Source of the DNA: Nocardioides jiangsuensis | GTDB taxonomy: Bacteria > Actinomycetota > Actinomycetes > Propionibacteriales > Nocardioidaceae | Length of the DNA: 64,000 bases | Direction: 5' to 3' | Assembly: GCF_019679455.1 (NCBI RefSeq) | Contig: NZ_JAIEZQ010000003.1 | Location: forward strand, 434,001-498,000 | Part shown: positions 39,235-43,544 of the stretch, in pieces | Numbering within the stretch: the stretch's first letter is position 1 | Layout: each line of letters begins with the position of its first letter | Translations under genes and position numbers: made by a program | Notes under the pieces: generated by a model | Database searches by the model: none | Told to the model about the DNA's origin: nothing | Seen by the model: the letters and a program-made list of their open reading frames with translations, nothing else

Positions 39235-39390
39235 CGGCGGGGAGGCTCGGTGAGTTCCGTATCTCGAAACGGAGTCAAAACCCGGGCGATACCTACCGTT
39301 GAGTAGCCATCTGCTCTACGTTGTGCAGCAACCAGTCAGCCGCCCACTGGCGCGACCCGTCGTGCCCCCGTGGGAGAGATAGGGAGAGCG

Positions 39391-41217
39391 ATGTCCGAGA
39401 CCGCCGTCAACCACGACCTCACCGCGATCGAGAATCGAGCGCCCAACGTCGGACGTCAGTTCTTCGACCGGGTGCAGGCCAGCCCGAACCGGGAGGCCTA
39501 CCGCTTCCCCAAGGGTGACGCGTGGGAGTCGGTGACCTGGAAGGAGACCGGTGACGAGGTCACCAGGCTGGCCGCCGGGCTCGTCGCGCTCGGCCTCGAG
39601 CCGGAGCAGCGTGTGGGTATCGCCTCCAGCACCCGCTACGAGTGGATCCTGGCCGACCTCGCCATCATGTCCGCGGGTGGCGCGACCACCACGGTCTACC
39701 CGTCCACGATGGCCGAGGACGTCGCCTACATCCTGGCCGACTCCGAGTGCCGGGTGGTGTTCGCCGAGGACGACGAGCAGGTCGCCAAGCTGACCGCGCA
39801 CAAGTCCGAGCTGCCGCACCTGGACAGGGTGGTCACGTTCGACGGCACCCCCGACGGTGACTGGGTGATCGGGCTGGCCGACCTGGAGAAGCTCGGTGAG
39901 GAGCTGCTCGCCCAGAGCCCCGGCGTCGTCGAGGAGCGGATCGAGGCGACCTCCCCGGACGCGCTGGCCACGCTGATCTACACCTCCGGTACGACGGGTC
40001 GTCCCAAGGGCGTGCGGCTGCGCCACTCGTCGTGGACCTACGAGGGCACCGCGATCAAGGCGCAGGGCATCCTCGACGAGAACGACCTGCAGTACCTGTG
40101 GCTGCCGATGGCCCACTCGTTCGGCAAGGTGCTGCTGTCCACCCAGCTCGCCTGCGGCTTCGCCACCGCCGTCGACGGGCGGGTGGAGAAGATCATCGAG
40201 AACCTCGCGGTGGTCCGGCCCACCTTCATGGGCGCCGCGCCCCGCATCTTCGAGAAGGCCCACGGGCGCATCATCACGATGCAGCAGACCGAGGGCGGCA
40301 TCAAGGAGAAGCTCTTCAACCAGGCGTTCGCCGTCGGCACGAAGGTCCGCCAGCTCAAGCTGGAGGGCAAGCCGGTCCCGTTCCTGCTCGCCAAGCAGCA
40401 CGCGCTGTTCGACAAGCTGGTCTTCGCCAAGATCCGCGAGCGCTTCGGTGGACGGGTCCGCTTCTTCATCTCCGGCGCCGCCGCGCTGAACCAGGAGGTC
40501 GCGGAGTGGTTCCACGTCGCGGGCATCCTGATCCTCGAGGGCTACGGGCTCACCGAGACCTCGGCCGGCTCGTTCGTGAACCACCCCGACGAGTACCGCT
40601 TCGGGACCGTGGGCCAGGTGTTCCCGGGCAGCGAGGTGCGGATCGCCGAGGACGGTGAGGTGCTGATCAAGGGCCCCGGGGTCATGGACGGCTACCACAA
40701 CCTCCCGGAGCAGACCGCCGACACCTTGCAGGACGGCTGGCTGCACACCGGCGACATCGGCGAGGTCGACGCCGACGGCTTCCTGCGCATCACCGACCGC
40801 AAGAAGGACCTCTTCAAGACCTCCGGCGGCAAGTACATCGCGCCGTCCTCGGTCGAGTCGCAGTTCAAGGCGGTCTGCCCGTACGCCAGCCAGTTCCTCG
40901 TGCACGGCAATGACCGGAACTTCTGCGTCGCGCTGATCACGCTCGACCCCGACGCCATGGCCGAGTGGGCCACGCACAACGGGATGACCGGTGCGTCGTA
41001 CAAGGAGATCGTCAGCTCCCAGAAGGTCCAGGACATGGTCCAGGGGTACGTCGACCAGCTCAACGCCCGGCTCAACCGCTGGGAGACCGTGAAGAAGTGG
41101 ATCCTGCTCGACCACGACCTCTCGGTGGAGTCCGGTGAGCTGACCCCGTCCATGAAGGTCAAGCGCAAGGTCGTCGAGGGCAACTACAAGGACCAGATCG
41201 ACGCTCTCTACCGCTGA
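39391..41217 (+). CDS. Long-chain fatty-acid-CoA ligase (FadD15-like)
   Basis: A 608-aa AMP-binding enzyme activating fatty acids to acyl-CoA. The P-loop signature YTSGTTGRPKG starts at residue 197. EGYGLTETSAG, the adenylate motif LHTGDIGEVDADGFLRITDRKKDLFKT (in part) and C-terminal SMKVKRKVVEGNYKDQID match FadD15-like long-chain ligases. The ATG at 39391 follows AGGGAGAG. It ends 12 bp before the palindromic repeat at 41229, which can serve as its terminator. Confidence 0.92.
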   Translation: MSETAVNHDLTAIENRAPNVGRQFFDRVQASPNREAYRFPKGDAWESVTWKETGDEVTRLAAGLVALGLEPEQRVGIASSTRYEWILADLAIMSAGGATTTVYPSTMAEDVAYILADSECRVVFAEDDEQVAKLTAHKSELPHLDRVVTFDGTPDGDWVIGLADLEKLGEELLAQSPGVVEERIEATSPDALATLIYTSGTTGRPKGVRLRHSSWTYEGTAIKAQGILDENDLQYLWLPMAHSFGKVLLSTQLACGFATAVDGRVEKIIENLAVVRPTFMGAAPRIFEKAHGRIITMQQTEGGIKEKLFNQAFAVGTKVRQLKLEGKPVPFLLAKQHALFDKLVFAKIRERFGGRVRFFISGAAALNQEVAEWFHVAGILILEGYGLTETSAGSFVNHPDEYRFGTVGQVFPGSEVRIAEDGEVLIKGPGVMDGYHNLPEQTADTLQDGWLHTGDIGEVDADGFLRITDRKKDLFKTSGGKYIAPSSVESQFKAVCPYASQFLVHGNDRNFCVALITLDPDAMAEWATHNGMTGASYKEIVSSQKVQDMVQGYVDQLNARLNRWETVKKWILLDHDLSVESGELTPSMKVKRKVVEGNYKDQIDALYR

Positions 41218-41221
41218 CGCG

Positions 41222-42250
41222 TCACCCCGGTCGTCCGTAGGAGCGCGCGCTATCGGCCCCGCTCCTACGGACGACCCGGTCCACGCCCAGGGCGCGGAGG
41301 TCCCGGACCACCCGATCCGGATCCCGGCGGATCTCGTACGTCGTGCAGCGCAGCACCACCCGCCCGGCCACGACGAGTCCCCGCTCACGCGTCATGTCGG
41401 CGGCCCACCGGGCGGCGTGCATGTGCAGGCCGCCGTCGACCTCCAGCACCACGACCCGGCCGTCGGGGAGGTCCCACTCGCAGTCGGTGTAGCGGTTGAC
41501 GCCGTCAGCGTCGCGTCGACGGACCTGCCGCCGGGGGAGCGGCAAACCGTGCGCGCGGCACAGGCGGCCCACGTCGACCTCGGCCATCGACTCGGCGCCT
41601 CCGGCGATGTCCGCGAGCACCGAGCGGAACACCCGGGCCCTGCGAAGCGGGTGCAGGAGCGCCACCCAGTCCGTCAGCGCGGCCGGTGTCGTCAGCCCCT
41701 GCTGCACGGCGGCGGCGAGGAGCCCGCAGGCGGTCCGCTCGACCCGGTGGTAGGCGCCGAACAGCAGGATGGCCGGCTCGAGTCTCAGCACCGGCAGCGT
41801 GGACCGGTCCGAGGTCATCGCGGGAAGGTCGCGGCGCGTCTCGACGTACCTGATGCCGGGGATCCGCGGCAGCCGCTCCGACTTGGGCACCAGGACGCAG
41901 TCGACCTCCCGCCGCCAGCTCCGCAACCCGTGCATCTCGCCGGCGGTGAGCCCGCCCACCGCGGCCTGTGGTCCCGCGTTCAGAACGGCAGCCCACAGCC
42001 GCTGTCGCCGGGTCAGTGGACCGGTCGTCGTACACACCACGAGCGGGCCCACGGGCTGCCACCGAGCGGCGCGGAGCTGGTTCCGCACGAAGTGCCGGTC
42101 CAGCCCCAGGTCGCGCAGCTGCTGGCGTGAGAGCACGTCGGCCTGCCGGGAGGCGAGGTCGTGCCAGCGACCGGGGTCGTTGTGGAGTGCGGACACGCCC
42201 GCCAGCATGGCCGGGCCCTGTCGTGCGTGCAGGTCCTCGTCCACAGTCAA
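41222..42250 (-). CDS. DUF559-type endonuclease-fold protein with AbiEi-like N-terminus
   Basis: Up to 342 aa. The C-terminal domain (about 245-335) matches the DUF559/Vsr-like nuclease fold: RYTDCEWDLPDGRVVVLEVDG (in part), HMHAARWAADMTRERGLVV and VVLRCTTYEIRRDPDRVVRDL, with the acidic D/E-x-D core residues kept. The N-terminal part resembles AbiEi-like winged helices (ASRQADVLSRQQLRDLG). Starts are ambiguous: TTG 42250, GTG 42244 or ATG 42208; none has a clear ribosome binding site. The gene is flanked by two 46-bp near-identical palindromes, so it may be a mobile cassette. Its role is unknown. Confidence 0.75.
   Translation of the reverse strand: MTVDEDLHARQGPAMLAGVSALHNDPGRWHDLASRQADVLSRQQLRDLGLDRHFVRNQLRAARWQPVGPLVVCTTTGPLTRRQRLWAAVLNAGPQAAVGGLTAGEMHGLRSWRREVDCVLVPKSERLPRIPGIRYVETRRDLPAMTSDRSTLPVLRLEPAILLFGAYHRVERTACGLLAAAVQQGLTTPAALTDWVALLHPLRRARVFRSVLADIAGGAESMAEVDVGRLCRAHGLPLPRRQVRRRDADGVNRYTDCEWDLPDGRVVVLEVDGGLHMHAARWAADMTRERGLVVAGRVVLRCTTYEIRRDPDRVVRDLRALGVDRVVRRSGADSARSYGRPG
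41229..41276. repeat. Palindromic repeat, copy 1
   Basis: A perfect 16-bp stem (41229-41244 with 41261-41276) around a 16-nt loop. It lies just past the 3' ends of the ligase and DUF559 genes, which converge here. It shares 44 of 46 bases with copy 2 in the same orientation. Confidence 0.85.
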
Positions 42251-42300
42251 GGGTCGTCCGTAGGAGCGCGCGCTATCCGCCCCGCTCCTTCGGACGACCC
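42251..42300. repeat. Palindromic repeat, copy 2
   Basis: A 17-bp stem (42251-42267 with 42284-42300) with one mismatch and a 16-nt loop. It lies between the divergent DUF559 and hemW genes, directly beside the DUF559 TTG and 5 bp before the hemW -10 box. Here it cannot be a simple terminator. Confidence 0.85.
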
Positions 42301-42317: not shown

Positions 42318-43544
42318 GTGCCTTCCGCCCTGCCCGACGGTGACCCCGCGCCGTACGACGGCTCCCTGCCCGCCCCCGCGCTCGAGGGGCTCGGCCGCCG
42401 TCCCTTCGGGTTCTACGTGCACGTCCCGTTCTGCTCGGTGCGGTGCGGCTACTGCGACTTCAACACCTACACCGCCTCGGAGCTCGGGGACGGCCCCGGC
42501 GCCTCGCGGGCGTCGTACGCCGACGCGGCCGTCGAGGAGGTCCGCCTCGCGCGCAAGGTGCTCGGCCCGGTCGACGTACCGGTGGAGACGGTGTTCTTCG
42601 GCGGCGGCACCCCGACCCTGCTGCCACCGGAGGACCTGGTCCGGGTGGTCGCCGCGATCGACGAGGAGTTCGGGCTCGCGCCCGGCGCCGAGGTCACCAC
42701 GGAGTCCAACCCCGACAGCGTCTCCGCCGCCGACCTGGCCGTGCTGCGCGCGGGCGGGATCAACCGGGTCTCGTTCGGCGTGCAGTCCGCGGTGCCGCAC
42801 GTGCTGCGGGTGCTCGACCGGACCCACGACCCGCTCCGGGTGCCGCAGGTCGTGGACTGGGCGCGCGCGGCCGGCTTCGACCAGGTCAGCCTGGACCTGA
42901 TCTACGGGACGCCGGGGGAGAGCCTCGCCGACTGGCGGACCTCCCTGGACAGCGCGCTGGCGAACCGGCCGGACCACGTCTCCGCCTACGCGCTGATCGT
43001 GGAGGAGGGCACCGCGCTGGCCCGGCAGATCCGGCGCGGGGAGGTCGCGATGACCGACGACGACGACCTGGCCGACAAGTACCTCGCCGCCGACGAGACG
43101 CTCGAGGCGGCCGGGCTCGGCTGGTACGAGGTGTCGAACTGGTCCCGTGACGGGTCGACCCGCTGCCGGCACAACCAGCTCTACTGGACCGGCGGCGACT
43201 GGTGGGGCGTCGGCCCCGGCGCGCACTCCCACGTGGGCGGCGTGCGGTGGTGGAACGTCAAGCACCCGACGGCGTACGCCGGCCGGATCGCCGGAGGGGT
43301 CAGCCCCGCGCATGCGCGGGAGGTGCTCGACGCGGAGACCCGGCGGGTGGAGCGGGTGCTGCTCGAGGTCCGGCTGCGCGACGGGCTGGACGTCACCGTG
43401 CTCGACGACGCGGGCCGCGCGGCGCTGCCCGCCCAGGTGGACCGGGGGCTGCTCGACCCGGCGGCGCTGGCGGCAGGCCGCGCCGTGCTCACGCTGCGGG
43501 GCCGGCTGCTCGCCGACGCCGTCGTGCGCGACCTGCTGCCCTGA
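42318..43544 (+). CDS. hemW: Heme chaperone HemW (radical SAM)
   Basis: A 408-aa radical SAM protein once annotated as coproporphyrinogen III oxidase and now regarded as a heme-delivering chaperone. The cluster motif C-x3-C-x2-C is C39, C43, C46 (HVPFCSVRCGYCDF). Glycine-rich FFGGGTPTLL and the HemN C-terminal domain (YEVSNWSRDG; WWGVGPGAHSHV) are present. It lacks the extra N-terminal region of true HemN oxidases. The GTG coincides with the predicted transcript start. Confidence 0.93.
   Translation: MPSALPDGDPAPYDGSLPAPALEGLGRRPFGFYVHVPFCSVRCGYCDFNTYTASELGDGPGASRASYADAAVEEVRLARKVLGPVDVPVETVFFGGGTPTLLPPEDLVRVVAAIDEEFGLAPGAEVTTESNPDSVSAADLAVLRAGGINRVSFGVQSAVPHVLRVLDRTHDPLRVPQVVDWARAAGFDQVSLDLIYGTPGESLADWRTSLDSALANRPDHVSAYALIVEEGTALARQIRRGEVAMTDDDDLADKYLAADETLEAAGLGWYEVSNWSRDGSTRCRHNQLYWTGGDWWGVGPGAHSHVGGVRWWNVKHPTAYAGRIAGGVSPAHAREVLDAETRRVERVLLEVRLRDGLDVTVLDDAGRAALPAQVDRGLLDPAALAAGRAVLTLRGRLLADAVVRDLLP

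What the first reader, a model, noticed from the sequence alone, without database searches (positions are those of the whole stretch)
41229..42300. DUF559 endonuclease-type gene bracketed by near-identical palindromes
Seen: a 46-bp sequence occurs at 41230-41275 and 42253-42298 in the same orientation, 44 of 46 bases equal, each a long hairpin with a 16-nt loop. Exactly one gene, of DUF559 nuclease type, lies between. One copy sits between convergent genes, the other between divergent genes, so they are not simply two terminators. Inference: the nuclease gene and its repeats may move or be lost as a cassette between lepA-linked genes and hemW, with the repeats as substrates.
Basis: partly seen in the sequence, partly recalled or inferred. 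Interest (0 to 1): 0.66.

Follow-up and report, generated by a model that had tools for sequence, protein, structure and literature searches.

The report
Nuclease gene bracketed by scattered palindromes
A small bacterial DNA-cutting enzyme gene sits between two copies of a 48-letter palindrome that is also scattered over the genome, and many related bacteria show the same arrangement with their own matching palindrome, which points to an unrecognised partnership between an enzyme and a spreading DNA repeat.

Summary
The unit is a 48-bp palindrome (41229-41276, 42252-42299; 46 of 48 equal); the genome holds 11 exact-ended copies. The gene between joins an AbiEi-type DNA-binding half to a Vsr/EDxHD-type nuclease half (predicted model against PDB). 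Of 112 homologous loci, 60 have palindromes on both sides; the two copies of a locus share a median 42 of 48 bases, against 26 between loci. Palindrome type varies by genome, and dispersed copies match the cassette's type (T1-only cassette genomes 99 T1:4 T2 copies; T2-only 311 T2:1 T1). Palindrome similarity follows the AbiEi half (r 0.51), not the nuclease half (0.09). The same architecture occurs in Microbacterium (22-88 copies), Gordonia (8-13), Knoellia and Microlunatus. A Y1 (RAYT-type) transposase was found in 0 of 19 palindrome-rich genomes. Cassettes mostly stay at shared sites; at acpS-NAXE a congener has a cassette, this genome a solo palindrome, two other congeners none. Best reading: a RAYT-REPIN-like partnership built on an unrelated enzyme. 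Binding, cutting and copying are inferred.

The parts
41229..41276 (.). palindrome copy A (downstream palindrome), 48 bp, overlaps the 3' end of the nuclease reading frame
42252..42299 (.). palindrome copy B (upstream palindrome), 48 bp, 43 bp before the likely start codon of the nuclease gene
41222..42208 (-). AbiEi-DUF559 nuclease gene, 328 codons plus stop from ATG 42208 (open frame reaches TTG 42250)
41603..42187 (-). AbiEi-like DNA-binding half (residues 8-202 of the 328-aa protein)
   Evidence: PADLOC AbiEi profile PDLC02249 in 26 of 26 aligned members at E <= 0.01; PDB 6y8q Z 11.9
41267..41596 (-). Vsr/EDxHD-type nuclease half (residues 205-314); invariant E210, D242, E256, D258, H262, D271
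   Evidence: PDB 3r3p Z 10.7, 3hrl Z 10.3, 1cw0 Z 9.4; invariants in 50 of 50 aligned
39370..41217 (+). left neighbour: AMP-binding ligase (flank of the site, not part of the system)
42318..43544 (+). right neighbour: hemW-type radical SAM gene (flank of the site, not part of the system)

Best explanation
It is one member of a repeat-plus-nuclease system of Actinobacteria. A gene for an AbiEi-type DNA-binding domain fused to a Vsr/EDxHD-type nuclease is bracketed by two 48-bp palindromes, and further copies of the same palindrome type are dispersed between genes of the same genome. Proposed working: two protein monomers bind the two 24-bp inverted halves of a palindrome through their AbiEi halves; the upstream copy also serves as operator; the nuclease half nicks or cuts at palindromes or at the hairpins they extrude, and repair or copying spreads new copies, mostly to gene 3' ends, and keeps a genome's copies alike. 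The cassette itself stays for long times at a home site, moves rarely, and is lost, perhaps leaving a solo palindrome. Shown: bracketing, dispersal, type matching, tracking by the AbiEi half, shared sites, empty sites. Inferred: binding, autoregulation, cutting, copying, and that the nuclease is what drives dispersal.
For: Bracketing: 112 homologous loci, upstream palindrome in 76, downstream in 74, both in 60, against 44 palindromes in 235,908 bp elsewhere in the same loci (0.05 and 0.04 expected per search window). In 28 of 73 loci where both can be placed the gene's stop codon ends at position 14 (16 loci), 27 (7) or 1 (5) of the downstream palindrome. Pairing: median 42 of 48 within a locus, 26 between loci; own partner is the best match in 44 of 60. 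Dispersal: T1 in 28 of 341 genomes, T2 in 62 of 341 with up to 42 copies, reversed-pattern controls 0; Gordonia 13, 8 and 8 and Microbacterium 22, 88 and 74 with up to 2 mismatches, controls 0. Type matching in 98 genomes, Fisher p about 1e-13. Co-occurrence: 48 of 82 palindrome genomes have the gene against 49 of 259 others. The AbiEi half tracks the palindrome, the nuclease half does not. AbiEi is reported to bind two 23-bp inverted repeats 3 bp apart, two monomers, 49 bp in all (PMC7319586, passages). Sites.
Against: No insertion, excision, binding or cleavage was observed, and no target-site duplication could be defined. Comparisons between genomes are not corrected for kinship. The search windows and score for palindromes were chosen after first seeing them. 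22 of 112 loci have no palindrome at the threshold, and 3 of the 60 two-sided loci have partners that share only 12, 13 and 19 of 48 bases. 8 of 38 genomes with at least 5 copies have no DUF559 hit at E <= 1e-50; one of them (G170) does carry the gene, so that search misses some. G184 and G187 carry 21 and 7 T2 copies but cassettes of another type. The wHTH columns alone are not enriched among columns that track the palindrome (92 of 263 shifts as high). For the nuclease half Foldseek alone is weak (3hrl E 0.059, 3r3p E 0.56); the case rests on the second alignment.
Confidence: 0.62

Rival explanations
1. Regulon reading: the protein is an AbiEi-like repressor, the palindromes are its operators (its own promoter and scattered targets) or bidirectional terminators, and the nuclease half has a separate job. 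Nothing moves; copies are kept by selection.
For: AbiEi is reported to bind inverted repeats in its own promoter (PMC7319586, passages); the upstream palindrome lies just before the gene; the AbiEi half tracks the palindrome; palindromes fold as hairpins and many lie just after stop codons. In this genome copy B and probably the copy at C3:53253 lie between divergent genes, where operators could act.
Against: By a simple gene caller only 2 of 53 fetched T1 palindromes with called neighbours lie between divergent genes (the caller labels C3:53253 otherwise, so the number is a lower bound); 25 of 53 begin -1 to 9 nt after a stop codon. Some lie in frame inside long open frames, some in short arrays, and several solo sites are empty in close relatives.
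Confidence: 0.2
2. One reading: the gene and its two repeats transpose as one cassette, and the solo copies are footprints of lost cassettes.
For: Cassette at acpS-NAXE in G001, solo palindrome at the same site in G000, no palindrome in G002 and G003; internally deleted cassette in G273 with two palindromes and a C-terminal fragment; 111 loci in 45 distinct neighbourhoods; the ligase-hemW group itself is not one clade (3 changes, 32 of 500 shuffles as low).
Against: Over all seven site groups the sites follow the protein tree with 7 changes where 6 is the minimum, so moves look rare, while dispersed copies reach 42 to 88 per genome, many for footprints of a gene found once to three times per genome.
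Confidence: 0.1
3. Another enzyme, such as a RAYT/IS200-type or other transposase, spreads the palindromes, and the DUF559 gene is a passenger or a defence gene caught between two copies.
For: GTAG-type REPs elsewhere are linked to such enzymes (PMC3733652, abstract and passages).
Against: PF01797 (Y1_Tnp) has a match in 0 of 19 palindrome-rich genomes, while 5 of 14 control genomes ring; type matching between cassette and dispersed copies and the tie to the AbiEi half are not expected for a passenger. Other transposase families were not searched.
Confidence: 0.08

Closest known systems
RAYT (TnpA-REP) and REP/REPIN systems of Proteobacteria
   Same: enzyme gene flanked by a palindromic repeat that is dispersed through the genome, repeat types that differ between species, copies mostly downstream of genes (PMC3733652 abstract and passages; RAYTs as single-copy genes, PMC3116915 passages)
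   Different: enzyme is AbiEi plus Vsr/EDxHD nuclease, not a Y1 HUH transposase; repeat is 48 bp and paired to its ends, not 20-40 bp with an unpaired GTAG or CGTC tag; found here in Actinobacteria
EDxHD homing endonucleases (I-Bth0305I) and Vsr repair endonuclease
   Same: fold of the nuclease half (3r3p Z 10.7 over 95 residues, 1cw0 Z 9.4 over 98); I-Bth0305I is described as dimerising on a target of nearly 60 bp (PMC3943268 passage)
   Different: not inside an intron or intein here; carries an AbiEi half; sits between copies of its presumed target
AbiEi antitoxin/repressor of type IV toxin-antitoxin systems
   Same: fold of residues 8-202 (6y8q Z 11.9); reported binding to two 23-bp inverted repeats (PMC7319586 passages), close to two 24-bp halves here
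   Different: no AbiEii toxin among the two flanking genes; fused to a nuclease; repeats dispersed
Pfam DUF559 / REase_MTES_1575 proteins
   Same: nuclease half matches the C-terminal part of both profiles weakly
   Different: the genome's other four DUF559 genes have no palindrome pair beside them

Membership tests
RAYT-REP (REPtron) | Y1 (HUH) transposase gene, PF01797 | tested here: not met
   0 of 19 palindrome-rich genomes; control genomes ring in 5 of 14; the bracketed protein has other folds
RAYT-REP (REPtron) | enzyme gene flanked by copies of a dispersed palindromic repeat | tested here: met
   both flanks in 60 of 112 loci; dispersed copies
RAYT-REP (REPtron) | 20-40 bp repeat with an unpaired GTAG or CGTC tag at one end | tested here: not met
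   48 bp; positions 3-11 paired in 91-100% of 140 palindromes (picked for pairing, so somewhat inflated), pairing 59%, 42%, 37% at the first bases outside in 112 of them
EDxHD / Vsr-type nuclease | Vsr-like catalytic fold | tested here: met
   model residues 205-314 against 3r3p, 3hrl, 1cw0, 1vsr, Z 8.4 to 10.7; Foldseek alone weak
EDxHD / Vsr-type nuclease | catalytic residue pattern | tested here: inconclusive
   E210, D242, E256, D258, H262, D271 invariant in 50 of 50; correspondence to catalytic residues of Vsr is recalled, not aligned here
EDxHD homing endonuclease | cuts the empty target and is copied into it | not testable with these tools
   needs biochemistry or strain-level data
AbiEi | AbiEi fold | tested here: met
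   PADLOC AbiEi profile in 26 of 26; 6y8q Z 11.9
AbiE type IV toxin-antitoxin system | adjacent AbiEii (DUF1814) toxin gene | tested here: not met
   the two flanking genes of the window match AMP-binding and Radical_SAM; not tested in the other loci
Pfam DUF559 | score over the family's curated cut-off | tested here: inconclusive
   20.4-20.5 bits against 20.6 for the protein; reported as over the cut-off at 22 in the genome search
insertion sequence / MITE | target-site duplication | tested here: inconclusive
   empty sites found but intergenic sequence too diverged to define one

The most novel reading that the evidence does not exclude
A class of selfish or domesticated repeat systems not described before: an AbiEi-Vsr nuclease that reads, cuts and thereby copies its own 48-bp palindromes through actinobacterial genomes, evolving in step with them, as a second and unrelated invention of what RAYT transposases and REPINs do.
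Probability: 0.5. Interest if true: 0.92.

Novelty: categorically new. Interest (0 to 1): 0.85.

Why it matters
GTAG-type REPs are thought to be moved by RAYT transposases, and CGTC-type REPs have no known enzyme (PMC3733652, abstract). Here a different enzyme, built from an operator-reading AbiEi domain and a homing-endonuclease-type nuclease, appears to be paired with a dispersed palindrome family in several groups of Actinobacteria. That would make the question of how repeats and enzymes stay together testable in a second, independent system, would suggest a role for a group of AbiEi-DUF559 proteins that match no NCBIfam model, and would offer nucleases whose target may be read off the genome beside them.

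Tried and rejected
Two terminators of neighbouring genes only: rejected, because the sequence is shared across unlinked sites and matched to the cassette type. Known RNA family: no Rfam match of weight (one mir-4018 hit at 20.5 bits against a cut-off of 66). RAYT-driven repeat: Y1 transposase in 0 of 19 genomes; other transposases not searched. Plasmid or phage gene: no plasmid match at E 1e-10, one 33% match in a 7.6-kb phage record, no relative confirmed in viral contigs (131 pattern stretches), no PHROGs match for 26 members. PDB by sequence: no match. Recognition residues: wHTH columns alone do not stand out; the test by halves does. Target-site duplication: could not be defined. Literature: ten searches; in their listings I saw nothing that links DUF559 or AbiEi-nuclease genes to dispersed palindromes. 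The library holds open-licence papers only, and most listed papers were not opened. What I saw: PMC3733652 outline, abstract and passages; PMC3116915, PMC3943268, PMC7319586, PMC12915292 and PMC8861277 passages (the last two, opened because they hold the search terms, are unrelated); all others as search listings.

Rows dropped: of 111 DUF559 places listed, 110 were fetched (G282 left out); two more loci (L097, L104) were added because palindromes led to them, so the 112 and the 98 genomes are slightly biased. For the tree, 98 of 112 proteins were long and open enough, and only 60 of those fall in the seven named site groups, with 4 of the 7 ligase-hemW loci. The tree is a quick one; 32 of its 95 inner branches have support under 80. 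For the structure alignment 59 sequences were first offered and 50 used. The palindrome scan was strict and missed G330's own pair; one search repeated it on the 25 ligase-hemW intervals with the other score.

Full report
Observation. The two repeats are present as described. The unit is 48 bp: 41229-41276 and 42252-42299, 46 of 48 equal. Each folds as a hairpin on either strand far better than shuffled sequence. The window is C3:434001-498000 of a 3.97-Mb genome whose family includes Nocardioides: the relative G168 has a contig of the same length, 80,564 bases, as the N. jejuensis record that carries the same match. Between the repeats lies one gene on the minus strand; its frame runs on through copy A to a stop at 41222-41224.

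The repeat is a genome-wide family. The 48-bp form with exact 9-bp ends occurs 11 times in this genome; the exact pattern read backwards gives 0. In 341 family genomes the T1 form (GGTCGTCCG-30-CGGACGACC) occurs in 28 and a T2 form (GGTCGTGTG-30-CACACGACC) in 62, up to 42 copies in one genome, reversed-pattern controls 0 in the listed tables. The inner arms differ from genome to genome; most listed copies are palindromic inside too, though some single hits are not (G098, 12 of 24 pairs). The four other DUF559 genes of this genome have no palindrome pair beside them; three weak single matches (9.3-9.6) occur in two of the four loci.

The gene is bracketed in relatives too. A protein search at E <= 1e-50 found the gene in 97 of 341 genomes, 111 places. 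I fetched 110 of them and added two found through palindromes. With one mechanical palindrome score, chosen after the first look, 76 of 112 loci have an upstream palindrome, 74 a downstream one, 60 both, 22 none; elsewhere in the same loci there are 44 such palindromes in 235,908 bp, so 0.05 and 0.04 would be expected per window. The upstream copy lies before the start codon, the downstream one at the stop codon; in 28 of 73 loci where both can be placed the stop ends at position 14 (16), 27 (7) or 1 (5) of the palindrome. The two copies of a locus share a median of 42 of 48 bases (57 of 60 share at least 34), copies of different loci 26; the partner is the best match in 44 of 60. Protein and palindrome distances correlate (n 79, r 0.45, 0 of 2000 permutations as high).

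It is not confined to one family. A scan of named genomes gave the best 80 of 112 relatives, among them Microbacterium, Knoellia, Phycicoccus, Gordonia, Microlunatus and Propionibacteriaceae. Of these 80, many of them the same loci as above, 57 have an upstream and 55 a downstream palindrome, 44 both, and 42 of the 44 share at least 34 of 48 bases. Their own palindromes are dispersed in their own genomes: with up to 2 end mismatches 13, 8 and 8 copies in three Gordonia and 22, 88 and 74 in three Microbacterium, controls 0. In 140 palindromes from such pairs position 5 is G in 280 of 280 arms, positions 3-11 pair in 91-100%, and pairing falls to 59%, 42% and 37% at the first three bases outside.

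Cassette and dispersed copies match. In 98 genomes with a fetched gene locus, 13 of 16 with a T1 cassette have at least 2 T1 copies and 0 of 82 others do; for T2 it is 26 of 31 and 4 of 67 (two of the T1 genomes, G170 and G273, came in through their palindromes). The 15 genomes with only T1 cassettes hold 99 T1 and 4 T2 copies; the 30 with only T2 cassettes 311 T2 and 1 T1. Exceptions: G184 and G187 have 21 and 7 T2 copies beside cassettes of another type. Palindrome genomes carry the gene more often than others (48 of 82 against 49 of 259, Fisher p 4e-11; within one genus 28 of 36 with at least 5 copies against 48 of 179, p 1e-8). These counts are not corrected for kinship.

What the protein is. 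Residues 8-202 have the AbiEi fold (6y8q, Z 11.9, 185 residues; an AbiEi profile in 26 of 26 members), residues 205-314 the fold of the homing endonuclease I-Bth0305I and of Vsr (3r3p Z 10.7, 1cw0 Z 9.4), although Foldseek alone ranks these weakly (3hrl E 0.059, 3r3p E 0.56). E210, D242, E256, D258, H262 and D271 are invariant in 50 of 50. AbiEi is reported to bind as two monomers to two 23-bp inverted repeats 3 bp apart in its own promoter (PMC7319586, passages read); that is 49 bp, close to the 48 bp here. Across 93 proteins, similarity of the palindrome's outer 12 bases correlates with identity of the AbiEi half (r 0.51) and not of the nuclease half (r 0.09); bootstrap interval of the difference 0.24 to 0.55. 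The wHTH part alone does not stand out column by column (92 of 263 shifts as high).

Gene gain, loss and sites. Of 30 hemW loci, 24 have ligase and hemW without the gene, 3 have it, in 3 the ligase was not seen. Outside the cassette this genome has 29 bases between the two genes; congener G002 has 27. In the 24 intervals without the gene the scoring scan finds one hairpin over threshold of another design (L085) and, below threshold, a 48-bp palindrome in L093 (G067) of the type that lies beside that genome's own DUF559 gene. Six solo sites of this genome were sought in five relatives: of 17 comparisons with both flanks, 15 have no palindrome by a strict scan (in five of them the interval is no longer than a clean empty site), one has an unrelated palindrome, and one, acpS-NAXE in G001, has a cassette (its downstream palindrome decayed) where this genome has a solo palindrome and G002 and G003 have none. 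The 111 loci fall into 45 neighbourhoods by shared genes on both flanks, chained; the largest, 29 loci, is the one that holds G001's acpS-NAXE cassette, and 7 share the ligase-hemW flanks. On a quick protein tree seven site groups (60 loci) need 7 changes, the minimum being 6, shuffled mean 31; the ligase-hemW group by itself (4 loci in the tree) needs 3 changes and is not one clade; G001's acpS-NAXE protein branches just outside a 21-protein group that holds those four and others. So cassettes mostly stay in place and move rarely; the solo palindrome at acpS-NAXE here may mark a former home (inference). In G273 a cassette is decaying beside the ligase gene.

Where dispersed copies lie. Of 53 fetched T1 palindromes with genes called on both sides by a simple caller, 2 are between divergent genes, 16 between convergent ones, 35 between tandem genes (three of the 53 also lie inside an open frame, and three are cassette copies). 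The caller labels the copy at C3:53253 tandem, though the likely genes there are divergent. 25 of 53 start -1 to 9 nt after the stop of the gene before them. Some lie in frame inside long open frames; 48 bp is 16 codons. This fits REP-like spreading with selection against harm better than a regulon, but does not exclude one.

Comparison. The arrangement works like RAYT-REPIN systems (PMC3733652 and PMC3116915, passages), but the enzyme test fails: a Y1 transposase in 0 of 19 palindrome-rich genomes, and the repeat design differs. It is not filed as a member. The two flanking genes here are no AbiE toxin either. The listings of ten literature searches gave no description of it; they cover open-licence papers only.

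Verdict. The finding is real and, once widened, surprising. What is shown is a type-matched pair of nuclease gene and dispersed palindrome in several actinobacterial groups. What is inferred is that the protein binds and cuts the palindrome and thereby spreads it.

Noticed in passing
L280 (Microbacterium azadirachtae) near 2720-2911 and L281 near 2639-2840: Extra palindromes of the same type stand in short arrays upstream of the bracketed gene.
   Followed up: partly
L101, L110, L113, L039: T1 palindromes inside long open frames, in frame (48 bp is 16 codons); in L113 within the NAXE gene, where the stretch has 6 extra residues against this genome's protein.
   Followed up: partly
L104, 2001-2363 (G273): Decayed cassette beside the ligase gene: two palindromes with only a C-terminal fragment of the nuclease between them.
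   Followed up: partly
L093, gap between ligase and hemW (G067): No nuclease gene, but a 48-bp TTCGTCCG...CGGACGAA palindrome, apparently with a second similar copy, of the type beside that genome's own DUF559 gene (L202).
   Followed up: partly
L162, L177, L179, L186, L192, L195, L198 (site B clade): A clade of the same protein family at one shared site shows no palindromes at the threshold, while L127 and L148 at that site have one: possible domestication.
   Followed up: no
L149 (G184) and L151 (G187): Cassette palindromes are of a CCTCGTGATGC type, yet the genomes hold 21 and 7 T2 palindromes: perhaps orphans of a replaced cassette.
   Followed up: no
own genome C1:237289 and C2:442066: Two diverged 48-bp palindromes with 3 and 2 end mismatches, possible old copies of the family.
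   Followed up: no
L216, L218-L220, L326-L328, L331: A distant group, including Propionibacteriaceae, uses AGTTGTC/ACTTGTC palindrome types.
   Followed up: partly
phage record MT837139.1, 3682-4404: Weak relative (33% over 76% of the protein) in a 7.6-kb unannotated phage record.
   Followed up: no
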